DNA of 64,000 nt from Uliginosibacterium gangwonense DSM 18521 (GTDB taxonomy: Bacteria > Pseudomonadota > Gammaproteobacteria > Burkholderiales > Rhodocyclaceae): the NCBI RefSeq assembly GCF_000373965.1, contig NZ_KB892863.1:1-64000 (forward strand), read 5' to 3'. A model generated the notes under the pieces. The model was not told the DNA's origin. It did no database searches and saw only the letters and a list, made by a program, of their open reading frames with translations. A program made the translations under genes and the position numbers. Below, one piece after another: positions 3,338 to 38,414 of the stretch; position 1 is the stretch's first letter, and each line of letters starts with the position of its first letter.

Positions 3338-4219
3338 TCAGGCGGATGAACTGACTTTGAATTCCATCTCCAAGGACGTCGTAAATCCCGAACTGGACAG
3401 GCTGTGCGTAGCCCTCGCAATGAGCCAGTCGGTGGCATCCATCTCGGGCTTGAAGCCTTGCACGATCACCGGCAATTCGGGAAACAGATCGGCCCGACCC
3501 CGCGCCAGGGATAGACTGAAACTTGCCACACCGCGTTGGAGGCGTTGCCATTCTGCTTTGGCTGCACGTTCGGCGGTGGTCTTGCTGGCGTAGGTGTGGC
3601 GCAGTACTTTGGTGTTCTCTGCACTGGCCTTGATTTCTGTGTTCGCGCTCTTGTTCTTCCGTTTTCCCCCGGTCGCTGTGGTGCCCTTGGCATTGACCAG
3701 CACCTCCCCATGCGTGCCCCCCCGGATATCCTGATAGTAAGCCTTCACTGCCGTGTAGGTGTCGCGTTCGGCCATGGCAAAGCGATGTTGATCGCCACTG
3801 GCTCGCGTGATCGTAACGGTGGGAAATGGCGTACCCGATACGGTTTCCGCCTCGCCAATGGGCATGAACAAGAGCATGCCTTTCTTCACCGTGGCAATGG
3901 CATCGTGATCGCGCGCCAGGCGTGTGAGCAGGTTCACGTCTGACTCGTTGGTTTGGTCGATATGCTCGATGGTGAGGCCCGCCAAGCCTTGGGATACCTT
4001 GGGCGTGAGGCCGTGGGCCGATGCAATGGCTTTGACGATTTCACCGATCTTGTGCCCCGCCCAGCTTTTGGTCTGTTTCGTGATTAAGCCTGCACGCAGG
4101 TCTGCGCTTTTGCCGCGCAGGGTGAGCCGATCCGGCGTGCCGGAATGCTCCACCTCATCAATGATGAACGTCCCCTTATCCACCAAGGGTTCGCCCCGCC
4201 AGCCCAGGAAGAGGGCCAC
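3338..4219 (-). CDS. phage late control D-like tail hub protein, 5'-truncated
   Basis: This 293-residue product resembles the GPD/VgrG-like hub of P2-type contractile tails. Recognisable segments include LGWRGEPLVDKGTF near the N-terminus, a central VNLLTRLARDHDA stretch and the C-terminal LEMEF end. Full-length D proteins carry roughly 60 more N-terminal residues. Here the homologous frame continues upstream of the GTG at 4219 for about ten codons (KLAIPDRGVTV) and then meets a TGA at 4250-4252. The beginning of the gene has therefore been lost. It is probably a non-functional prophage remnant, although the remaining frame is uninterrupted. The RHS gene follows on the same strand after about 190 bases. 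No other tail genes are nearby in this window. Confidence 0.75.
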   Translation of the reverse strand: MALFLGWRGEPLVDKGTFIIDEVEHSGTPDRLTLRGKSADLRAGLITKQTKSWAGHKIGEIVKAIASAHGLTPKVSQGLAGLTIEHIDQTNESDVNLLTRLARDHDAIATVKKGMLLFMPIGEAETVSGTPFPTVTITRASGDQHRFAMAERDTYTAVKAYYQDIRGGTHGEVLVNAKGTTATGGKRKNKSANTEIKASAENTKVLRHTYASKTTAERAAKAEWQRLQRGVASFSLSLARGRADLFPELPVIVQGFKPEMDATDWLIARATHSLSSSGFTTSLEMEFKVSSSA

Positions 4220-14815: not shown

Positions 14816-17722
14816 TCAGGCGGCTGCCCGTGCCTGAGTTTCGTCTGACTTGACGGGAAGCAGCAGCTTGAAGATGGCGCCGCCTGTGGGGTGATTTTCC
14901 ACCCACAGCTGCCCGTTGTGATCCAGGATGATCCGGCGGCAGATAGCCAGCCCCAAGCCCGTGCCCCCTTGAGGCAAGGTTTGGTGCCCCTGGATAAAGG
15001 CTTCAAAGATGTTGTTTATGTCTTGTTCCGGAACACCGGGGCCTTCATCACGGATCGCAAGTCCGACCGCACGGGTGGTCTCTCCGATGATGGCCTCATC
15101 CAGAAATTGGATGTGGATGGCGCCGTTTTTAGGGCTGAACTTGATGGCGTTGGAAAGTAGATTGATGAAAACCTGATGGATGCGCTCTTGATCGTAATAG
15201 GCGTTCACGGTCGGCGTGGTTTCATCCATCTCAATGCGCAGGTTCTTGTTTGAGAGCAGGGAAGACAACTCACGGGCAGAAGTCTGGAAGGTCTGCTGGA
15301 GTGCATGCTGCGCGAGGTTGTATTGCATCTTGTTGGCTTCAAGCTTCGACATGTCCAGCAGATCATTGAGCATTTTCAACAAACGTCTGCCGCTGCTATC
15401 AATGCGTTCAAAATAGCGCTTTAATGTAGATGTGTTTGTATTGTCTGTTTTTTGTATGCCCATCTCGGAAAAGGATAGGATGGCATGCATTGGCGTGCGC
15501 AATTCATGCGACATATTGGTCAGGAATAAGGATTTTGCGGTGTTGGCTCGCTCGGCATATTCCTTGGCCTGGATGAGAGAGCGCTCGATTTCCTTTTGAT
15601 GAGTGATGTTGGTGAGAAACACAAATGCATGGGTGATCTGCCCGTCTTCGTCGCAGACCACGCCACGGCTGGCCAGATACGTGCGTTCATTGCCACTCTG
15701 GTCAGGCAAAGAGACTTCCTCAAACGGTTGGTGGGCGATCTGCTTGGGGTCATGCGGGAAGAGCTTCTCCGCAATGGCTTCTCCCCACAGACTGGCGGGG
15801 GTTTTTGTCTTCAGCTCGGATGAGCTGATTCCGGTCTGGAGGCAAAGTGCGCGATTGATCTCAATAAAACTGTTATGTGTATCGACTAACGCAAAAGAAT
15901 CTTCGGTTGCATCCAATACCAGGCGCATGAGTCGTTCAGAGTGGCGTAGGGCTTGTGCCGCCAGGCGTTGAGGGGTGTTGTCCTCAATTACATAGATCAG
16001 GCCTTCTTCTGGTGCATGAGGATTGATGGCGCGGGCAAAGAAGACTGCCCAGAAGCGCCCTCCATCGTTGCGTTTGAGTTCGATCTCGCGGCGGAAGGTT
16101 TTGTCCTGTGCGGCGCGCTCCCGTATATCTCTGACCGTATCGGCATATTGCGTTTCGTCGAGGAAAAAGACGCTTTCCTGCATGTTTTCAATTTTGCCGG
16201 ACCTGAAAGTGAACAGCGCTTCGAAGGCACGGTTGCAGACTTTGATTTGTCCGTTTGTCGACAGGGCGATAGCCAGGGGGGATGCATCCAGAATGGTCTG
16301 GATTTCCGCTGTCTTGGCGCTGACCAGTTCTTGCAAATGGTCGCGGTGGCGTTTGAGTTCTCTTTCTGCTTCTTTGCGTTCGCTGATGTTTCGCGCCGCG
16401 ACGCAAAGGTAGCTTTGCCCATTGAATGCGACAGCCGACAGGGTGATCTCTATCGGCGTGGTATTTCCATCTGCGCAAGTCAGTTCAGCGGTATGGGTGA
16501 TGCAGGAGCCTTGCGGGTTGGCGTCACACCAATCCTGCCACGAGGATTCATCAAGCGCTACGATCTGCTCAATGGGTTTATCGAGCAGATCATCAATCTG
16601 GTAGCCGGTGTGATCAAGCACGCTTTTGTTTGCATAGACAAGCTGCAAATCTGCTTTGCACCACAGCACCATGTCTGGAGAGACGTCCACCGTGTGTTGG
16701 GTCAGACGTAGCTGCGATTCGGCTTCGTCGGCACGTCGCAGTTGTCGCAGTAGCAAATAGTGCAGCATGGAATGCAAAACAATGAAAAATGCCACAATCA
16801 TTATATACTTGATGGCATTTTCCTGGAATGGGGCCAGAACGCGATCTGCTTCCATGCTGATGCGCACCTGGAAGGGGTAGTGCCCTGCGTTGTGTTGTTG
16901 GATGACGAAGCGGTCTTTACCTTGCTCCCCTTCCTTGACGCGAAGCAGATGCCCCTCCTGATCCTGCGTCTCAGCATAATGCGGATCAAGTTCGCGTGCG
17001 GTTTTCCCCATCAATTCAGTGCTGGATGGGTATGCGAGCATGATGGCGCCTGAATCGAGCGTAACCTGGACATGTGTGCCCGAGTCGAGTGCCAGGAATT
17101 GATAGAAACTCAGAAAATAGTCGGGCTCGACCCCCGCGAGCACAATGCCGCCAAAGTTGCCGTCCTTGGTCGTAATCCGGCGGGTGACGGGAATCAGCCA
17201 TTTGTAATCGGTGCGGCTGACCAGCGGTGTATCCAGCAAGGGGTTCAGGCTGGGCGAATCCCGGTGGTAGGCGAAATATGATCGATCCGCCAGACTGATC
17301 TGACGGGTTGGGTATTCCAACCCATGTGCGCGTAAGATTCCCTTTTCGTCGATAGCGATCAGCCCGCGTACCTGCGGGGTAAGCTGTACCTTTTCACGCA
17401 GGGTTTCGTGGATCTGCTTCTCATCAATGTGTGATACACCGCCATCCCGGGTGATGTCTTCAGCCACGTTCTGCATGGCCTGCTCGACGGAGGCGAAGCT
17501 GCGGGTCAGGTGCTCGTCCAGAGAGCGGATCAGGGATTGGCTGCTGCGCTCTGCCGTGGCAAGCGTCTTGTAGTATTCGTAGTACAGACTCCAGCCCAAA
17601 ACGATAAGCAATAGCAGGCAAACCCCCCAATACAGACGCCAAAGCCATTGCCGCAGCCGTTTGAGTGGCACGGATGCGCGGTGTGCGTGTACGGCGTCAA
17701 TTTTGGCGTCGAATCGGTGCAT
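14816..17722 (-). CDS. membrane sensor histidine kinase with Cache-like sensor and PAS domains
   Basis: A 968-residue kinase. Membrane helix 1 lies at about residues 29-48 and helix 2 at about 308-330. They flank a ~260-residue periplasmic region that looks like a double Cache sensor (contains YPTRQISLADRSYFAYHRD). Three PAS-like domains follow at about 340-460, 475-590 and 605-720, joined by coiled segments. The HisKA box is NMSHELRTPMHAI with phospho-acceptor His739. The ATPase domain shows NAIKFSPKNGAIHI, DEGPGVPEQD and GGTGLGLAICRRI. There is no receiver domain and no adjacent response regulator, so the partner is unknown. The gene follows the T2SS operon on the same strand after 126 bases. 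Confidence 0.92.
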   Translation of the reverse strand: MHRFDAKIDAVHAHRASVPLKRLRQWLWRLYWGVCLLLLIVLGWSLYYEYYKTLATAERSSQSLIRSLDEHLTRSFASVEQAMQNVAEDITRDGGVSHIDEKQIHETLREKVQLTPQVRGLIAIDEKGILRAHGLEYPTRQISLADRSYFAYHRDSPSLNPLLDTPLVSRTDYKWLIPVTRRITTKDGNFGGIVLAGVEPDYFLSFYQFLALDSGTHVQVTLDSGAIMLAYPSSTELMGKTARELDPHYAETQDQEGHLLRVKEGEQGKDRFVIQQHNAGHYPFQVRISMEADRVLAPFQENAIKYIMIVAFFIVLHSMLHYLLLRQLRRADEAESQLRLTQHTVDVSPDMVLWCKADLQLVYANKSVLDHTGYQIDDLLDKPIEQIVALDESSWQDWCDANPQGSCITHTAELTCADGNTTPIEITLSAVAFNGQSYLCVAARNISERKEAERELKRHRDHLQELVSAKTAEIQTILDASPLAIALSTNGQIKVCNRAFEALFTFRSGKIENMQESVFFLDETQYADTVRDIRERAAQDKTFRREIELKRNDGGRFWAVFFARAINPHAPEEGLIYVIEDNTPQRLAAQALRHSERLMRLVLDATEDSFALVDTHNSFIEINRALCLQTGISSSELKTKTPASLWGEAIAEKLFPHDPKQIAHQPFEEVSLPDQSGNERTYLASRGVVCDEDGQITHAFVFLTNITHQKEIERSLIQAKEYAERANTAKSLFLTNMSHELRTPMHAILSFSEMGIQKTDNTNTSTLKRYFERIDSSGRRLLKMLNDLLDMSKLEANKMQYNLAQHALQQTFQTSARELSSLLSNKNLRIEMDETTPTVNAYYDQERIHQVFINLLSNAIKFSPKNGAIHIQFLDEAIIGETTRAVGLAIRDEGPGVPEQDINNIFEAFIQGHQTLPQGGTGLGLAICRRIILDHNGQLWVENHPTGGAIFKLLLPVKSDETQARAAA

Positions 17723-30202: not shown

Positions 30203-31132
30203 ATGACCTTAGTATCCCTCATGTTGGCTCTGGTACTTGAGCAGTGGAAACCTTTCAAAGCGGCACGGTATCTGTACCCGCTTTTGGAGAGCCTGGGGCA
30301 GTATTTTGAAGACCGCTTCAATGATGGTCAGGCCAAGCACGGCGCTATTGCCTGGTGCCTGCTGGTTTTGCCACCGACTGTCTTGGTGGCGGTTGCCTAC
30401 TTTCTGATCTATACCACGCACCCATTTCTGGCGCTGCTGTTCAATATGGTGGTGCTGTACTGCACGATGGGGTTCCGGCACTCCAGCCATTTCTTCACCC
30501 GTATCCACTCCAGCCTGAGAGCCCAGGATCTGCCTGAGGCCAGAAAGCTGCTGGGTGAGTGGCGGGGGCATCTGCATGAGTTGAGCAGCACTAACGAAGT
30601 GGTACGCCTGACCATTGAGGAAGGGATTGTTGGCTCCCATCGCCAGGTATTTGCCGTGATCGTCTGGTTCGTGCTCATGCCCGTGCCTGGGCCTTGCGGG
30701 GCGGTGTTCTATCGTATGTCCGAGTATTACGCCAGAACCTGGGGGAAGCGCAAAGACCCGGCGTTTGGGGAATTTGGCAGCTTTGCGGCCCAGGTTTTTG
30801 AGTTGATTGAGTGGTTACCTGCACGGATTACCGCGATCGGCTTCTCGTTCATGGGTGATTTTGAGGATGCTGCTCATTGCTGGCGCACCCAGGCCACTTT
30901 GTGGGTCAATCGCATTGAGGGGATTTTGCTGTCGGCAGGTGCCGGGGCGCTTGGTGTACGTCTTGGTCAGCCGATTCATCAAAATGGTGAAACCATTGAT
31001 CGTCCCGAGTTGGGTACGGGCGACGAAGCGGAGGTTGATCATCTGCAGAGCTTTATTGGTCTTGTGCGCAGAACCCTGGTGCTGAATCTGCTGCTCGTGA
31101 TCCTGCTTGGCTTTACCCGGGTGATCGGCTGA
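30203..31132 (+). CDS. CobD/CbiB family membrane protein
   Basis: A 309-residue integral membrane protein related to adenosylcobinamide-phosphate synthase (CbiB/CobD). There are hydrophobic helices near residues 50-90, 150-170 and 285-305. Family-like segments include HSSHFFTRIHSSLRAQDL and GSHRQVFAVIVWFVLMPVPG. No other cobalamin genes are near. This betaproteobacterial version commonly follows a CoA Nudix gene, so it may be a paralogue with another role. Confidence 0.82.
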   Translation: MTLVSLMLALVLEQWKPFKAARYLYPLLESLGQYFEDRFNDGQAKHGAIAWCLLVLPPTVLVAVAYFLIYTTHPFLALLFNMVVLYCTMGFRHSSHFFTRIHSSLRAQDLPEARKLLGEWRGHLHELSSTNEVVRLTIEEGIVGSHRQVFAVIVWFVLMPVPGPCGAVFYRMSEYYARTWGKRKDPAFGEFGSFAAQVFELIEWLPARITAIGFSFMGDFEDAAHCWRTQATLWVNRIEGILLSAGAGALGVRLGQPIHQNGETIDRPELGTGDEAEVDHLQSFIGLVRRTLVLNLLLVILLGFTRVIG

Positions 31133-31136
31133 GGCT

Positions 31137-32090
31137 TTACTGCTGCTGCAAGGCCCAGTGTGAGACCTGTTCCAGTATCTGGGCCTGATGATCTGGTTGC
31201 AGGCAGTCAACGGTCTGCACCTCAGGCCATGTCTGTTTGAATTGTCGCATCCAGGTGATCTGGCGTTTGGCCAGTTGGCGGGTTGCGGCAATCCCCTTGA
31301 AGCGCATCTGTTCAAAATCGATTTCACCGTTGATGTATTCCCACATCTGGCGGTATCCCACACAGCGCATTGAGGCCATGTTTGGGGAGAGCGTGTATTG
31401 GGTGAGTAGCTTGCGTACTTCCTGTTCAAACCCGGCTGTGAGCATGGCGTCAAAACGCTGGGCGATCCGCTCGTGCAGCACAGCCCGATCGGAGGGTTCC
31501 AGGGCAATTCTCAGGAAGGGCAGAGGCGTCTCATCTAGCGGTGAGCGTTTGTTGTAATTTTCCGCCAGAGATTGCCCGCTCAGTCGCACGATTTCCAATG
31601 CCCGCTGGATGCGTTGCGCGTCGTTGGGATTCAGGCGGGCGGCTGCTTCGGGGTCGAGTTCTGCCAAGTCCGTGTGCAAGGCTGGCCAGCCTTTTTCGCG
31701 TGCTGCCTGCTCAATTTCTTCCCTCAATGCGCCGTCTGCCTGGGGGAGATCCGACAAGCCATCATGCAAGGCTTTGAAATACAACATGGTTCCACCCACC
31801 AATATCGGTGTGCGGCCACGGCGACAGATTTCGTTGATCAAGGTGAGGGCGTCACTGCGGAATTGGGCTGCGGAGTAGCTTTCCTCCGGGCTGACGATGT
31901 TGATCAGGTGCTGAGGGCAACTCGCCAACTCGGTAGCGGTGGGTTTTGCCGTACCAATGTCCATGTCGCGGTACACCAGTGCTGAATCCACACTGACAAT
32001 TTCCACGGGAAATTGGGATGCCACGGCCAGAGCCGCAGCTGTTTTACCCGATGCGGTCGGCCCCATCAGAAAGACGGCGTGTTGTTTCAT
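31137..32090 (-). CDS. miaA: tRNA dimethylallyltransferase
   Basis: A 317-residue enzyme that adds dimethylallyl to N6 of A37 in tRNAs reading UNN codons. Seen: P-loop [16 protein letters not shown] at residue 10, [16 protein letters not shown], the substrate motif [19 protein letters not shown], and the C-terminal [12 protein letters not shown] tRNA-binding segment. The gene is convergent with the CobD-like gene (four bases apart). It does not lie beside hfq, as it often does elsewhere. Confidence 0.97.
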
Positions 32091-32302
32091 GCGTCAAAAG
32101 TCATTGGATATTTGTTGTTGAGTTTAACGGCTTTCATTCATTTTTGCTGAAGATAAGGCTTGTTTTGACGTGGTTTGTGGATGACAAAGCGGTAATCTCC
32201 GCTCTTTTATCCGCCAAATATGCGTCACAAGGCGTTACAATTGGAAAAAATTAGACTGCGAGACCTGAATGCGGGTCACCGCGCTATGGAAATGGAGGAT
32301 TC

Positions 32303-33610
32303 GTGGGAGTCAGGAGCTTGGCAAGCTATGCGTACTCTATTTTGGTGCGCAATATCCATTACTTCGAGCCACGTTTTTTGCCTTTTGGTTTGGCGGCGGT
32401 TCTGGGGTTTCCCTGCTTTTATCTGGTATGGCACTACATATTTCCTCAGGCCTATGAGAGTCTCTCTTTACGCTTGATAGGTTCGGCGATATTTATCCCG
32501 ATCATCTTTGCTAGGCGTTGGCCTGCTCGCCTGCAACGCTTCCTTCCCGCATATTGGTATCTGGCGATTCTGTATGCCCTGCCGTTTTTCTTCACATTCA
32601 TGCTGTTGAAGAACGCAGGCTCCAGCACCTGGGTGCTGTCTGCCTTGTCGGCGGTTTTTCTGATGGTGCTCTTGCTGGATTGGTTGAATCTGTTCATCCA
32701 GTTCTTTCTGGGCGTGGGGCTGGCCTGGTTGGCCTACTGCATGACGACTACGGCACCAAGCATCGGCTTCCTGACGCTTGAACATGTGCCCATTTTTTTG
32801 TTCATTGTTGTCTTGGGGGCGCTGGCAAATTACAACTCCCAAGTGGTCAAGCACGAAAGAATGCGCGCCATGTTGATCGCTGCCAGTACGGTGGCGCATG
32901 AATTGAGGACGCCTTTGCTGGGAATCAAGGCTGGGGCTGCGGGTTTGAAGCGCCATCTGCCTGCATTGCTCGACGCCTATCGGCAAGCCAGCCAGGCCAA
33001 ACTACAAGTGCCACCGATACGTGGTGCGTACTTGGATTCCATGGCTGGGGTGTTGGAGCGGATTGAATCCGAAGTGGATTGTTCAAATACCGCAATCGAT
33101 ATCTTATTGATGAACACCCGAACGTTTAACATCAATGAAATCGAGCTTTCCGCATGCTCGATCCGCTCCTGTGTCGAAGCCGCCTTGCGGCGCTATCCCT
33201 TTAGCTCGGAACGAGAGCGTGCGCAGGTGGCATGGGAGGGGGGGGATGAGTTTACGTTTTGGGGAAATGAGTTGCTGACCGTCCATGTTTTGTTCAATCT
33301 ACTCAAGAACGCTGTCTATCATGTCGCTAAAGCAGGGAAAGGGCAGATTTGTATCCGCTTGAGCCGGGATCATGACCATGGGCATCTGATCTTTCGGGAT
33401 ACCGGGCCTGGAATTCCGCCACACGTACTGTCACACATATTTACTCGGTTCTACTCATGGTCTGGGGCGCATAATAACGGCTCCAGAGCAGGGATCGGGT
33501 TGGCGTATTGCCGAAGTGTGATGCAGGCTTTTGGCGGAACCATTACATGCAAATCGGTAGCTGGCGAGTACAGCGAGTTCGTTTTAACCTTTCCTGTGGT
33601 AAACGGCTGA
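32303..33610 (+). CDS. membrane sensor histidine kinase of a Cqs/Lqs/Jqs-type quorum-sensing locus
   Basis: A 435-residue kinase with GTG start and GGAGG upstream. Six or more hydrophobic helices fill residues 22-180, with almost no periplasmic domain, like the CqsS ligand-binding bundle. The dimerisation box is VAHELRTPLLGIKAG with phospho-acceptor His199. A long helical segment follows, then the ATPase domain: FNLLKNAVYHVAK (about 328), FRDTGPGIPPHV (about 364) and SRAGIGLAYCRSVM (about 395). No receiver is fused. The stop overlaps the start of the response regulator gene (TGATG), so the two are translationally coupled. The signal would be the alpha-hydroxyketone made by the neighbouring synthase; that is inference from context. 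Confidence 0.85.
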   Translation: MGVRSLASYAYSILVRNIHYFEPRFLPFGLAAVLGFPCFYLVWHYIFPQAYESLSLRLIGSAIFIPIIFARRWPARLQRFLPAYWYLAILYALPFFFTFMLLKNAGSSTWVLSALSAVFLMVLLLDWLNLFIQFFLGVGLAWLAYCMTTTAPSIGFLTLEHVPIFLFIVVLGALANYNSQVVKHERMRAMLIAASTVAHELRTPLLGIKAGAAGLKRHLPALLDAYRQASQAKLQVPPIRGAYLDSMAGVLERIESEVDCSNTAIDILLMNTRTFNINEIELSACSIRSCVEAALRRYPFSSERERAQVAWEGGDEFTFWGNELLTVHVLFNLLKNAVYHVAKAGKGQICIRLSRDHDHGHLIFRDTGPGIPPHVLSHIFTRFYSWSGAHNNGSRAGIGLAYCRSVMQAFGGTITCKSVAGEYSEFVLTFPVVNG

Positions 33611-34641
33611 TGCGGAGTATGGAAATACCACCGTTTTACTATCCGACTACGGTTATGTTTGTTGACGATAGTCGGGATTTTCTGTCGAATTTGAGCTTGC
33701 AGCTTGATGCTGGTTTGGCTTTTAGCCTGTATGACTCTCCTAATCAGGCATTGGGGGCGTTGAATACTGTGTCCAATCAGCCTTCGCTGGCTGAGCGTTT
33801 CTTTTCCATTTCTCGCCGTGCTGATGGGGATGGGCACCATGTGCTCGACCTGAACCTGGATAATGTGCTCCGGGAGGTGCATAACGAGCACCGGTTCGAG
33901 CAGGTCTCGGTAGTGGTGGTCGACTTTGAAATGCCCGAGATCAACGGTCTGGAGTTCTGCAAAGGAATCAAGAATCCTGCCATCAAGAAAATCCTCCTGA
34001 CTGGCAAAGCGGGTGAGAAGGTGGCGGTACAAGCGTTCAACCTGGGGTTGATAGACCGTTTCATTGTCAAACAGGATGAAGACGTCATCCCGATTCTGAA
34101 CCGCGCCATCGTGGATCTGCAAAATGCCTATTTCAGCCGCCAAGGGCGCATGATTCTGGATGCGCTGCTGCTGGGGTCGCATACATTTTTACGTGATCAG
34201 GTCTTTGCCAAGGAATTTGAGCAAATCTGCAAGCGTCTGGGAATTGTGGAGTGTTATCTGACGGGTGCGCCAGAGGGCATCATGATGCTGGATGCCAACG
34301 CCAAGGCCACACTGATGATTGTGCAGACGGAAGATGGCATGTTCAAGCAGTTTGAGTCTGCCTATGAACTGGCGGCGCCGCGATTCGTGCTGACGGAATT
34401 GAAAAACAACAAGTCTGTGTCCTACCTGGGGGCAGGACGTGGGCAAGGTGGCGCTGATCAGGCCGTGGATTGGTCGCGCTGTCTTTATCCCGCCACCGAA
34501 CTGCAAGGGGCAGAACCCTATTATTACGCGCTGGTTCCAGAACCTACGGGTTTTCCATTGGGGGGCGTGGTGTCTTACAACACCTTCCTGACTTGGAGTG
34601 ACCAGCAGGGAATCAACGCGGCCAGCGGTGGAGCAAGATAG
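33610..34641 (+). CDS. atypical response regulator (LqsR/JqsR-like)
   Basis: A 343-residue protein. The receiver has the acidic pair Asp19-Asp20 (MFVDDSRD), the phospho-acceptor Asp105 (VVVVDFEMPEINGLEF) and LTGKAGEK with the conserved Thr and Lys. The spacing between acidic pair and phospho-acceptor is about 85 residues instead of about 40, so the domain carries an insertion (about residues 55-98). The C-terminal ~190 residues contain no helix-turn-helix, GGDEF or other output domain that I recognise. The first codon overlaps the kinase stop. The organisation resembles LqsR of Legionella and JqsR of Janthinobacterium, which is my basis for the name; output is unknown. Confidence 0.82.
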   Translation: MRSMEIPPFYYPTTVMFVDDSRDFLSNLSLQLDAGLAFSLYDSPNQALGALNTVSNQPSLAERFFSISRRADGDGHHVLDLNLDNVLREVHNEHRFEQVSVVVVDFEMPEINGLEFCKGIKNPAIKKILLTGKAGEKVAVQAFNLGLIDRFIVKQDEDVIPILNRAIVDLQNAYFSRQGRMILDALLLGSHTFLRDQVFAKEFEQICKRLGIVECYLTGAPEGIMMLDANAKATLMIVQTEDGMFKQFESAYELAAPRFVLTELKNNKSVSYLGAGRGQGGADQAVDWSRCLYPATELQGAEPYYYALVPEPTGFPLGGVVSYNTFLTWSDQQGINAASGGAR

Positions 34642-34646
34642 CGTAG

Positions 34647-34695
34647 AAAGAGCCCGGGTCTGGCGTGTTGGGTACGCAAGTCCATCGGGCTCTTT
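34647..34695. terminator. shared bidirectional terminator between response regulator and autoinducer synthase genes
   Basis: A perfect 10-bp stem AAAGAGCCCG / CGGGCTCTTT lies between two converging genes, six bases past the stop of the regulator. The A-rich left flank and the T-rich right flank (GGGTTTTC) let it act in both directions. The 29-base interior is long for a terminator loop. Confidence 0.65.
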
Positions 34696-34732
34696 GGGTT
34701 TTCTACGATCTTGTCTGAAAACTCATCCGTAC

Positions 34733-36010
34733 TTAGGCTGCAGCTGCATTCTGGAAGTAGGGAGTTGTTTCTTTGCGGGTGTTTTTGCGCCGCGTGGATG
34801 CCCAAGCCTGCATGCCCACTTCACCCCGGATCTCTTTGCAGACTGCGACAATGCGTTCCAACTCTTCATCCGTTAGCATGCTATTGATTGACATGCGGAT
34901 CAGCGCACGATTTTTGGGTGTGGCAGGCGCACAGAAGATGGAGCCAAAAATGCCACGAGACTCCAGCGCGTCACGGAGCACAATGGTTTGTTGCTCAGTA
35001 CCAGATTCCAGCGCAATGATTTGCGCCTGACTGTCATTCAGGTTGTAGCCCAAGGCATCTAGCTCGTGACGCAGATAGGCCGAACTGGCATGCAGCCGTT
35101 GCCGCCGCCATCCTTCGGTACGAATGACTTCCAGGGTGGTATGGATTGAGGTGACTTCATGCGGGAGCAGGGTTGAGCTGAAGATTGCCGGGTTCGATTC
35201 AAACTTAAAGTATTCTGCGAACCGCTCCGAGCAAGTCACAAATCCCGCCCGCCCGGCAAATGCCTTGGCCAAACTGGCTGTACGGAAGTGGACCTTGCTG
35301 CTCAGCCCCAATGAGGCTACCAATCCTTCGCCGTAGCGGCCATGTGTGCCAAGCGAATGGGATTCATCCACCACCAGTACGCAGCCGTGGCGGGTGCCGA
35401 CGTCAACGAGTTCTTCAAGCGGGCAGAGGCTGCCATTGGTGCTGTAGACAGAGTCTACTAGGACAACCCCGGGGCCATTCTTGAGGATTTGGCGTTCCAG
35501 ATGCTCCATGTCGTTGTGATGGAACATGATGCTCGTCGCACCCGCTGCACGGATGCCTTCCCACAGCGACATGTGGGCCTGCATGTCCACATACACGGGG
35601 ATCGTGGCGTCAGCGATGGATTGCACAAGCCCGGTGTTGGCCAAAAAGCCGGATTGACAGAGTACGCCAGATTCTGCCCCCATGAAATTGGCTAGGCGTT
35701 TTTCCAGATTGAGCAGCGGGTTGTCTCCATGCAGAAAAATCCCGGACATGAGTAGTCCGCCGCCTTCAGCTAACATGCATTCTGATGTGCGTTGAAGAAT
35801 CTGTGGATGACGCGCAATCGACAAATAGTCATTGCTGCTCAGGTGAATGGCGTCTTTGCCCGGATGACGTCCGCGCATGATGTGCCCGCCCCCCCAAGTC
35901 TTGGTGACGCGCTCACGATAATAGCCATCTACCCGAGTGGACAGGAAGGCGGGGTCGGGTGCGTGTGTAAAGGCGGGAAGGCGGTTCAGGTTAGCAACTG
36001 CTGAGTTCAT
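34733..36010 (-). CDS. cqsA: alpha-hydroxyketone quorum-sensing autoinducer synthase (CqsA/LqsA/JqsA type)
   Basis: A 425-residue PLP enzyme of the alpha-oxoamine synthase family. Beyond the general family fold (LSSNDYLSIARHP, SGIFLHGDNPLL, VVDESHSLGTHGRYGEG), it shows the CqsA-type opening with an RVTKTWGGGHIMRG segment and lacks the features of BioF, Kbl or HemA. The PLP-lysine is Lys249 in ASLAKAFAGRAGF. ATG 36010 has AGGAG upstream. It should condense an acyl-CoA with a small amino donor (SAM or aminobutyrate in known cases) to give a long-chain aminoketone/hydroxyketone signal. Convergent with its likely sensor genes. The closest relatives of the enzyme cannot be ranked by eye. Confidence 0.88.
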   Translation of the reverse strand: MNSAVANLNRLPAFTHAPDPAFLSTRVDGYYRERVTKTWGGGHIMRGRHPGKDAIHLSSNDYLSIARHPQILQRTSECMLAEGGGLLMSGIFLHGDNPLLNLEKRLANFMGAESGVLCQSGFLANTGLVQSIADATIPVYVDMQAHMSLWEGIRAAGATSIMFHHNDMEHLERQILKNGPGVVLVDSVYSTNGSLCPLEELVDVGTRHGCVLVVDESHSLGTHGRYGEGLVASLGLSSKVHFRTASLAKAFAGRAGFVTCSERFAEYFKFESNPAIFSSTLLPHEVTSIHTTLEVIRTEGWRRQRLHASSAYLRHELDALGYNLNDSQAQIIALESGTEQQTIVLRDALESRGIFGSIFCAPATPKNRALIRMSINSMLTDEELERIVAVCKEIRGEVGMQAWASTRRKNTRKETTPYFQNAAAA

Positions 36011-36411
36011 GGTTTCTCCTAGATAAAAAGAATGAGAGGCGCAAAACTAAGGACTTATGACGAACGTCAGGATCGATCCATCACTGCACGCGGCGAATAA
36101 CTGCAAGCAGGACGGAAATAATTTAACGTAGCGAAACAATCTTCGCTGTGCCAAAACATCCATTTTGCGTAGCACTTTTGATATCTATGGAAGGGCGTTG
36201 GGAGAAACCACAACTTGAGCGCTTGTTCCTGGCAAGTTGTCAGCCTTATCCTGCAAGATGGGGCATGGTGCAGGCATAACGTCTTGCTATGCCTGCACTT
36301 TCGCGCGGCAGACCGTGATCAGGCTTTATGGATGAAAAATTCTTATGCTGTCGCAATCCGGTAATGGGCGACAGTGGGCGATGAAGGGTGCCAGAGGAGA
36401 GGCCAAACGAA
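36011..36411. other. 400-base non-coding region upstream of the autoinducer synthase
   Basis: No convincing reading frame is seen on either strand. It should carry the promoter of the synthase gene (minus strand). AT-rich bits occur near 36115-36140 and 36175-36190. I could not fix a -35/-10 pair or a regulator site. The frame on the plus strand at 36374-36682 is the antisense of the small basic protein gene. Confidence 0.5.
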
Positions 36412-36437
36412 AGAGGCTCTGACTAATCAGAGCCTCT
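36412..36437 (-). terminator. rho-independent terminator of the small basic protein gene
   Basis: A perfect 11-bp stem AGAGGCTCTGA / TCAGAGCCTCT with CTAA loop. On the minus strand it is followed by TTCGTTTGG, a modest T-run. It lies 90 bases past the stop of the 44-residue protein. Confidence 0.75.
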
Positions 36438-36526
36438 GGCGGATTGCTACAACGCATCAGTACCTTGGGGCCGGTCAGACTGTCATGTTTGACGGCTGGA
36501 GGCCTAAAGAAGTGGCGCGGATTGAA

Positions 36527-36661
36527 TTACTGAGAGGAGGGGAACAACTGCTGAATCGTCTTGGAATGGCGTTTGGCGGCCTTGACCAAGCGTTTTTCTT
36601 TCAAACCCATAACTGGAGTTTTTTTGGTTTCCTTGTTGCCATGTTGTTCCTTGTGACTCAT
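36527..36661 (-). CDS. small basic 44-residue conserved-type protein
   Basis: A short frame starting at ATG 36661 with a near-ideal AGGAGG seven bases upstream, and its own terminator downstream. The product is very rich in Lys, starts MSHKEQHGNKETKK and ends KTIQQLFPSSQ. Similar short Lys-rich proteins with an N-K-E-x-K-K pattern occur in other betaproteobacteria, as far as I recall. It is not a ribosomal protein that I know. The longer frame to 36724 adds an unlikely leader. Function is unknown. Confidence 0.7.
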   Translation of the reverse strand: MSHKEQHGNKETKKTPVMGLKEKRLVKAAKRHSKTIQQLFPSSQ

Positions 36662-36878
36662 GCAAGCCTCCTGAGTGGATGATTGGGAACGAACTACCAA
36701 GTCGGGCACCCCGACTCTATCCACTATAGGCTTGGTTTGATGTTTTGTATGGGGACGATGTCTGCCCAGGCGGCAGATGCCCGCTTAGCGGCAGCTAGAC
36801 TGGGGTTGCGGGTATGTTTGCAATTCTGTTGCGAGGACGTGTCTGACGCCCTCGCTTGATAGAGCTTGAAACCGACCC

Positions 36879-38414
36879 TTAACGGGCTTCTGCGTTTGCC
36901 AACCCAAGTTCGCCGGCAGGGGTTTTTGCGGAATCCGATTCCCAGGGGGTGTGATCGCTTTCCAGATCCATTTCCGCGTAGGGGACGATCCGGGTTTTGT
37001 GCTTGATGCGGTAGCCAAGCCAGATCAACAGGAACAATGGAATACCGATGTAGGTGGCGGTGAGGCCCACCCAATCAATCTTCCCGCCCAGTAGAGCCTG
37101 ATAATTCTGGCCCAGGGTAATCAGCAGGCACAGTGCAAAGGCAAACAGAGGGCCCAAGGGGAAGAAAGCAGATCTATACGGTAGGGCGGACATGTCCCGA
37201 TTCTGCAGCACGTAGCCTTTGCGGAAGCGGTAGTGGCAGACAGCGATGCCAAGCCACGCGATGAAACCCGTCATCCCGGAGGTATTCAACAGCCACAGAT
37301 AGACCGTTTTCTCGCCGTAGATCGAGGCCAGGAAACACAGCGCCCCCACAACCGTGGTGGCATAGAGTGCATTGAGTGGCACGCCATTGGAACTGAGCTT
37401 GGCGAAAATCCTGGGGGCTTTCCCTTCATTGGCCAGGGCGTAGAGCATGCGGGTCGACGCATACATGCCGGAGTTTCCTGCTGAGAGGATGGCGGTGAGG
37501 ATGACCGTGTTCATCACCCCCGCGGCAAACGCCAAACCCAGGCGTTCAAATACCAAAGTAAAGGGGCTGACGCCGATGTTCTCTACGTCATTTTTGAGCA
37601 GATTCGGGTCGGTATAAGGAATGATCAGGCCGATGATGGCAATCGCACAGACGTAGAACAGCAGAATCCGCCAGAACACCTGACGCACTGCACGGGGGAT
37701 ACTCTTGCCGGGGTTTTCCGATTCTCCCGCAGCAATTCCGATCAGTTCGGTGCCCTGGAACGAGAACCCTGCAATCATGGCTACCCCGAGCAGGGCTGGA
37801 AATCCTCCCGCGAAGGGCGCATCACCTGTTTTCAGATTCGCCAATGGGGAACTGGGTGCGCCGTGGACAATCCCAAAGATCATAGCAAGCCCGGCGGCGA
37901 TGAATACCAGCACGGTGACAACCTTGATGAGCGAGAACCAGTATTCACCTTCGCCAAAGCCTTTGACCGAGATGGCGTTGAGGATGAACATCAGGGCGAG
38001 GAAGGTTCCGCTCCATATGAAGCCTGAGACCTCTGGGAACCAGTACTTCATCACGATACTGGCCGCTGCAAGTTCTACCGCAATGGTCACCGCCCAGTTG
38101 TACCAGTAGTTCCAACCCAAGGCGAAGCCAAAGGCGGGGTCCACAAAACGGGAGCCGTAGGTGGAGAAGGAACCTGCCACGGGCATGTAGGCGGCCATTT
38201 CCCCCAGACTGGTCATCAGGAAATAAACCATGAGCCCGATGACCGCATACGCCACCAACGCACCTCCTGGCCCGGCTTGGGCGACGGATGCGCCTGAGGC
38301 AACGAAAAGCCCAGTGCCAATTGAACCACCGATGGCGATCATGGTGAGGTGGCGTGTACGCAGGCTGCGCCTGAGCTTGGGCTCAGGCGTGGATGCTGCG
38401 GGTGTGGTGTCCAT
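36879..38414 (-). CDS. lysP: lysine-specific permease-type amino acid transporter
   Basis: A 511-residue APC-family permease with 12 predicted helices. It matches LysP closely in my reading: RHLTMIAIGGSIGTGLFVAS at about residue 22, FSFQGTELIGIAAGESE, RAVRQVFWRILLFY, and LNTSGMTGFIAWLGIA. The C-terminal hydrophilic tail of ~30 residues is longer than in Escherichia coli. It takes up lysine with protons. Monocistronic; I see no lysine riboswitch in the 250 bases upstream. Confidence 0.92.
   Translation of the reverse strand: MDTTPAASTPEPKLRRSLRTRHLTMIAIGGSIGTGLFVASGASVAQAGPGGALVAYAVIGLMVYFLMTSLGEMAAYMPVAGSFSTYGSRFVDPAFGFALGWNYWYNWAVTIAVELAAASIVMKYWFPEVSGFIWSGTFLALMFILNAISVKGFGEGEYWFSLIKVVTVLVFIAAGLAMIFGIVHGAPSSPLANLKTGDAPFAGGFPALLGVAMIAGFSFQGTELIGIAAGESENPGKSIPRAVRQVFWRILLFYVCAIAIIGLIIPYTDPNLLKNDVENIGVSPFTLVFERLGLAFAAGVMNTVILTAILSAGNSGMYASTRMLYALANEGKAPRIFAKLSSNGVPLNALYATTVVGALCFLASIYGEKTVYLWLLNTSGMTGFIAWLGIAVCHYRFRKGYVLQNRDMSALPYRSAFFPLGPLFAFALCLLITLGQNYQALLGGKIDWVGLTATYIGIPLFLLIWLGYRIKHKTRIVPYAEMDLESDHTPWESDSAKTPAGELGLANAEAR

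What the first reader, a model, noticed from the sequence alone, without database searches (positions are those of the whole stretch)
32303..36010. Complete alpha-hydroxyketone (CqsA/LqsA/JqsA-type) quorum-sensing locus in a probable Neisseriales genome
Seen: a multi-helix sensor kinase with almost no periplasmic domain (His199), a translationally coupled atypical response regulator, and a convergent CqsA-like PLP enzyme (Lys249). Known: such trios are described from Legionella (Lqs), Vibrio (Cqs, with a different layout) and Janthinobacterium (Jqs). Inferred: this organism makes and senses a long-chain hydroxyketone signal. AHL systems are the better known quorum circuits in Chromobacterium relatives.
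Basis: partly seen in the sequence, partly recalled or inferred. Interest (0 to 1): 0.75.

Follow-up and report, generated by a model that had tools for sequence, protein, structure and literature searches.

The report
Ordinary hydroxyketone quorum-sensing gene trio

Summary
The trio is real and at the stated coordinates: sensor kinase 32303-33610 (+), LqsR-type regulator 33610-34641 (+, start overlapping the kinase stop), convergent synthase 34733-36010 (-). The synthase passes NCBI's equivalog model for alpha-hydroxyketone autoinducer synthases (590 bits, cut-off 428) and fails BioF and Kbl; its nearest solved structure is CqsA, and a tree splits it from 12 BioF/Kbl-like rows at 100/100. The regulator matches solved LqsR. 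The kinase keeps a CqsS-type sensor and all kinase boxes. Signal production is inferred. Two corrections. The host is probably not Neisseriales: rpoB places it apart from the three Neisseriales genomes compared, in a group that includes a MAG labelled Rhodocyclaceae. And the layout is the usual one: 22 of 23 other complete trios share it; lqs clusters across Alpha-, Beta- and Gammaproteobacteria are already in print (PMC10653808, passages). Mildly new is the patchiness: 7 of 249 genomes of the family, 1 of 8 of the genus; with the synthase sister to that of Paludibacterium, this suggests transfer. New member of a known kind.

The parts
32303..33610 (+). LqsS/CqsS-type membrane sensor histidine kinase, 435 aa, no fused receiver domain; H199, N box 332, G1 box 366, G2 box 397
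   Evidence: HATPase_c E 4.4e-23; HisKA under its cut-off; alignment with the kinases beside Vibrio cqsA, motifs; 32-33% identity to those Vibrio kinases and 64% to the Paludibacterium one
33610..34641 (+). LqsR/PhcX-type response regulator, 343 aa, phospho-acceptor D105; ATG overlaps kinase stop by one base
   Evidence: LqsR 6sy9, E 2.7e-65; 18-row alignment, D19 D20 D105 K154 invariant
34733..36010 (-). alpha-hydroxyketone autoinducer synthase (CqsA/LqsA/JqsA type), 425 aa, PLP lysine K249
   Evidence: NF005526 590.1 bits, cut-off 428; CqsA 3hqt; tree; 8 of 9 acyl-pocket residues as in CqsA
34642..34732 (.). 91-base gap between the converging regulator and synthase genes
   Evidence: coordinates; one weak terminator-like match on + at 34679
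31137..32090 (-). left border: miaA (not part of the system)
   Evidence: in the two congeners inspected further miaA has other genes on its 5' side
36879..38414 (-). right border: amino acid permease (not part of the system)

Best explanation
This is an ordinary, complete alpha-hydroxyketone quorum-sensing cassette of the Lqs/Jqs kind. The synthase joins a fatty acyl-CoA to an amino-acid-derived substrate (SAM in Vibrio, PMC3285556) on its PLP lysine K249 to give an amino- or hydroxyketone that leaves the cell (inferred from CqsA). The membrane sensor kinase (six helices by alignment with CqsS) binds it and switches kinase activity at H199 (inferred). The coupled regulator is phosphorylated at D105 and acts through its LqsR-type output domain; no DNA-binding domain was recognised in it (phosphorylation and output are inferred). 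The cassette was probably gained as one block: none of the 7 other congeners sampled has it, and its synthase is sister to that of Paludibacterium.
For: Family models and structures. Split from BioF/Kbl-like rows 100/100. Acyl pocket: 8 of the 9 CqsA positions named in PMC3285556 identical, V32 replaced by M45. Receptor: W110 and S113 fit V. cholerae W104/S107, and A175 fits the tail-length position (C170 in V. cholerae, F175 in V. harveyi) (numbering carried over by me through a V. campbellii kinase). Same layout in 22 of 23 other complete trios. Patchy presence; sister to Paludibacterium 98/99 for the synthase and 82 for the kinase, against an rpoB tree that places the genome elsewhere.
Against: No chemistry or phenotype is available. 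The regulator tree leaves the pairing with Paludibacterium unresolved and the kinase tree gives it only 82 SH-aLRT without bootstrap, so transfer of all three as one block is likely but not proven; loss in congeners is not excluded. I did not look for mobile elements or repeats at the borders. No sigma-70-like promoter was found in 31000-37200 (0, against a mean of 4.5 in shuffles). A hydropathy scan showed 5 distinct membrane segments, not 6.
Confidence: 0.93

Rival explanations
1. The PLP enzyme is a BioF/Kbl-type acyltransferase of metabolism that happens to lie beside a two-component pair.
For: Same superfamily; bioF and glycine C-acetyltransferase models give sizeable scores (252.8 and 216.9 bits).
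Against: Both lie far under their cut-offs (426.45 and 460) while NF005526 is far over its own; tree split 100/100; the genome has a separate, 25% identical relative on contig C10 that falls among the BioF/Kbl-like rows; the 4 BioF/Kbl-like rows compared differ from the window at 6 or 7 of the 9 pocket positions; a kinase of this type lies beside the synthase in 27 of the 28 other loci with readable flanks (23 trios, Cupriavidus, 3 Vibrio; not found beside Tistrella L078).
Confidence: 0.03
2. The regulator has been rewired to another quorum circuit (as PhcX in Ralstonia), so the trio is a physical but not a functional unit.
For: PMC10653808 (passages) shows an LqsR-family regulator moved to the phc genes in Cupriavidus and Ralstonia.
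Against: Here the regulator's start overlaps the kinase's stop and it remains beside the synthase; it is the only full-length match of its kind in the genome (the second match is partial, E 2.8e-4). Presence of phc genes was not tested.
Confidence: 0.07
3. The trio is a listening or decaying system: it senses neighbours' hydroxyketones and its own synthase is not expressed or is inactive.
For: Patchy distribution; no promoter-like site found by the sigma-70 scan.
Against: All three frames are intact with the catalytic residues in place; ribosome-binding-like sequences precede kinase and synthase.
Confidence: 0.08

Closest known systems
Jqs system of Janthinobacterium sp. HH01 (PMC3566124, passages)
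   Same: Betaproteobacterial synthase, sensor kinase and LqsR-type regulator side by side
   Different: By locus number the order there is jqsA-jqsS-jqsR; here kinase and regulator run towards the synthase. HH01 sequences were not compared here.
Lqs-type cluster of Paraburkholderia xenovorans LB400 (L017) and kin
   Same: Same three genes and same convergent layout; 67% (synthase), 52% (kinase), 46% (regulator) identity
   Different: Another host lineage; homologues in this species are listed in a review (PMC3376566, passages), no function seen by me
Cluster of Paludibacterium purpuratum (L003)
   Same: Closest relative found: 74-75% synthase, 64% kinase, 56% regulator; same layout
   Different: Host is of Neisseriales (Chromobacteriaceae by its record); the window's genome lies apart in the rpoB tree
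Legionella Lqs (LqsA/LqsS/LqsR)
   Same: Separate kinase and LqsR regulator; regulator matches solved LqsR, D105 aligns with D108
   Different: hdeD lies between lqsS and lqsR in Legionella (PMC3376566, passages); no second sensor of the LqsT kind found here. LqsA and LqsS sequences were not compared.
Vibrio CqsA/CqsS
   Same: Synthase family and pocket; sensor alignable over its whole length
   Different: The Vibrio kinases carry a fused receiver (about 690 aa) and no LqsR was found beside them

Membership tests
Alpha-hydroxyketone autoinducer synthase (NF005526; CqsA/LqsA/JqsA) | Score over the curated equivalog cut-off | tested here: met
   590.1 against 428 bits
Alpha-hydroxyketone autoinducer synthase (NF005526; CqsA/LqsA/JqsA) | Groups with CqsA-type enzymes, not BioF/Kbl | tested here: met
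   100/100 split, 23 against 12 rows; Vibrio rows included, no LqsA or JqsA row
Alpha-hydroxyketone autoinducer synthase (NF005526; CqsA/LqsA/JqsA) | PLP lysine and hydrophobic acyl pocket of CqsA | tested here: met
   K249; 8 of 9 pocket residues identical, V32 to M45
Alpha-hydroxyketone autoinducer synthase (NF005526; CqsA/LqsA/JqsA) | Makes an alpha-amino/hydroxyketone from acyl-CoA | not testable with these tools
   needs enzyme assay or mass spectrometry
CqsS/LqsS sensor kinase | Multi-helix membrane sensor without large periplasmic domain, alignable with CqsS | tested here: met
   aligned over the whole sensor with Vibrio kinases; the hydropathy scan printed 6 segments of which the first two overlap, so 5 distinct ones
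CqsS/LqsS sensor kinase | H, N, G1, G2 boxes | tested here: met
   positions 199, 332, 366, 397; box names recalled
CqsS/LqsS sensor kinase | Binds an alpha-hydroxyketone | not testable with these tools
   W110, S113 conserved; A175 at the tail-length position
LqsR/PhcX response regulator | Receiver plus LqsR-type C-terminal domain over nearly full length | tested here: met
   6sy9, residues 35-365 of the 377-aa frame, E 2.7e-65
LqsR/PhcX response regulator | Phospho-acceptor aspartate | tested here: met
   D105 invariant in 18 rows
BioF or Kbl | Score over curated cut-off | tested here: not met
   252.8 against 426.45; 216.9 against 460
Neisseriales (host) | rpoB groups with Paludibacterium/Chitiniphilus | tested here: not met
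   only three Neisseriales genomes of two families, midpoint drawing, so a deeper Neisseriales branch is not strictly excluded

The most novel reading that the evidence does not exclude
A whole alpha-hydroxyketone signalling cassette moves between betaproteobacterial lineages as a unit, and the betaproteobacterial trios use their own signal dialect: methionine at CqsA's V32 position in the synthase and alanine or serine at the receptor's tail-length position would suit tails longer than the C8 of Vibrio harveyi.
Probability: 0.3. Interest if true: 0.4.

Novelty: new member of a known kind. Interest (0 to 1): 0.2.

Why it matters
It adds a clean, testable member of the Lqs/Jqs group in a family where only 7 of 249 sampled genomes carry such a synthase, and points to two positions (synthase M45, receptor A175) where a chain-length dialect can be tested directly. 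It opens no new kind of system.

Tried and rejected
BioF/Kbl identity: rejected by cut-offs and tree. Neisseriales host: disfavoured by rpoB; the 16S of a congener leans the same way but is not decisive, since another family member, G105, is 90.5% to Paludibacterium. LuxI in the same genome: the one weak PF00765 hit (22.9 bits, cut-off 24) is closest to ornithine-lipid acyltransferases (OlsB models 159.5 and 158 bits, under their cut-offs of 320 and 350), so I found no LuxI; LuxR solos, luxS and phc genes were not searched. Second sensor of the LqsT kind: of 52 kinase matches only the query itself covers residues before 170. Rfam and tRNA scans of the window: nothing. A first rpoB tree was wrong: the script took the longest open frame, which for the three Neisseriales rows was not rpoB, and gave absurd branch lengths; redone with the right frame, it is not used. 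Two small frames at 36374-36682 and 36724-37074 gave no family. Rows left out: the synthase tree used 11 of the 18 named loci, 6 of 6 other family members, 5 of 7 plasmid-collection hits (those fetched), and 11 of the 23 sub-cut-off loci L028-L050 plus the own paralogue as BioF/Kbl-like rows, a label I gave them from their place under the cut-off, not from single annotations. Its long BioF/Kbl-like branches drew the tool's warning, so their own order is unsure. Kinase and regulator trees used 9 of the 17 named trios.
Full report
Observation. The three frames are present and intact at the stated coordinates. The kinase (32303-33610 +) has H199 in HELRTP and the N, G1 and G2 boxes. The regulator's ATG at 33610 overlaps the kinase's TGA by one base. 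The synthase (34733-36010 -) converges on them over a gap of 91 bases and has K249 at the PLP position.

Synthase. NCBIfam NF005526, 'alpha-hydroxyketone-type quorum-sensing autoinducer synthase', scores 590.1 bits (cut-off 428); bioF scores 252.8 (cut-off 426.45) and glycine C-acetyltransferase 216.9 (cut-off 460). The best solved relatives are CqsA structures, E 1.9e-107 for 3hqt. In a maximum-likelihood tree of 35 rows the 23 hydroxyketone-synthase rows, three Vibrio rows among them, are split from 12 BioF/Kbl-like rows at 100/100. Of the nine acyl-pocket residues of V. cholerae CqsA named in PMC3285556 (passages), eight are identical here; V32 is M45, as in 10 of 10 other betaproteobacterial trio rows compared (Cupriavidus has L, Tistrella T, three Vibrio V). 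The four BioF/Kbl-like rows compared differ from the window at 6 or 7 of the 9 positions.

Kinase. It aligns over the whole sensor with the kinases beside Vibrio cqsA, at 32-33% identity, and lacks their fused receiver. The residues that PMC3376566 (passages) gives for telling hydroxyl from amino ligands, W104 and S107 of V. cholerae, correspond to W110 and S113. The tail-length position, C170 in V. cholerae and F175 in V. harveyi (PMC3285556, passages), corresponds to A175; six other betaproteobacterial trio rows have A in five and S in one, Cupriavidus has I, three Vibrio rows have F. I carried the numbering over through a V. campbellii kinase. A small residue there fits a tail of C10 or more; this is inference.

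Regulator. LqsR (6sy9) matches from residue 35 of the long frame, which is the overlapping ATG, to residue 365, E 2.7e-65. D105 corresponds to LqsR D108 and is invariant in 18 aligned rows. No DNA-binding domain was recognised. PMC10653808 (passages) reports that the LqsR output domain resembles a diguanylate cyclase fold with a degenerate motif and no activity detected; how such regulators act is open. A structure model could not be made.

Distribution. One scan of genome contigs gave 18 loci; in 17 both partners are present, and L010 is on a contig of 3,392 bases that ends too soon. In the window's family 7 of 249 genomes exceed the cut-off, the window's included; 227 more have only matches under it, and 15 none. 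Of 14 control genomes 8 ring and none is over the cut-off. None of the seven other congeners is over it; one of those genomes is 89% complete, the rest 94% or more. All six other family members with the synthase have the trio. Kinase and regulator converge on the synthase in 22 of these 23 loci; Variovorax has synthase-kinase-regulator in one direction. Loci outside this kind: Cupriavidus EM10 and three Vibrio have synthase and kinase without a regulator match, and beside the Tistrella synthase neither was found. So the arrangement is the rule among betaproteobacterial relatives found, not a peculiarity.

Host. The assembly has no 16S match; 6 of 13 genomes asked gave one. rpoB came from 14 of 16 genomes asked. 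The window's genome groups with its two congeners at 100/100 and with another family member, G051, at 96/98; a MAG labelled Rhodocyclaceae lies among the rows of the family (group 91/95); Paludibacterium and two Chitiniphilus form a separate 100/100 clade. The nearest named genome by path is that MAG. Only three Neisseriales genomes were compared and the tree is drawn at its midpoint, so a deeper Neisseriales branch is not strictly excluded; 16S leans the same way but is not decisive. I conclude: probably not Neisseriales, probably Rhodocyclales or near it.

Origin. The synthase (98/99) and, weakly, the kinase (82) pair with Paludibacterium; the regulator's nearest row is Paludibacterium too, but its fork is unresolved. 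In three of four congener stretches read, the block on the window's left side is kept: TIGR02281 protease, a NUDIX-like frame (named by eye), CbiB family, miaA; in the two inspected further the 5' side of miaA holds other genes, and none of the four matched the trio. Together with absence from 7 of 7 other congeners this favours gain by transfer; loss in the others is not excluded. G+C of the trio is 53.6% against 56.6% for the window, a small difference.

What is known. PMC3566124 (passages) established jqsA/jqsS/jqsR in Janthinobacterium; [quoted passage not shown] Two searches pairing such systems with Chromobacterium (12 of 12 listed) or Rhodocyclaceae (12 of 41 listed) showed, in the listings seen, no paper devoted to them in those groups. 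The finding is a new member of a known kind, of modest interest.

Noticed in passing
36011-36878: 868 bases between synthase start and permease end hold no recognised gene, but a hairpin with an 11-pair stem and a tail with several T on the - strand at 36437-36412, roughly midway.
   Followed up: partly
31000-37200: No sigma-70-like promoter found where shuffles give 4.5 on average (sd 2.1).
   Followed up: no
L051 1432-2181 (own genome contig C1): A weak LuxI-like hit is closest to ornithine-lipid acyltransferases (OlsB), under their cut-offs.
   Followed up: partly
14816-17722: A large histidine kinase (968 aa) lies elsewhere in the window; not linked to the trio.
   Followed up: no
3338-4219: Protein with a weak VgrG-related match, 37.5 bits against a cut-off of 275.
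   Followed up: no
L004 (Variovorax sp. JS1663): Only one of 23 other trio loci with the order synthase-kinase-regulator on one strand.
   Followed up: no
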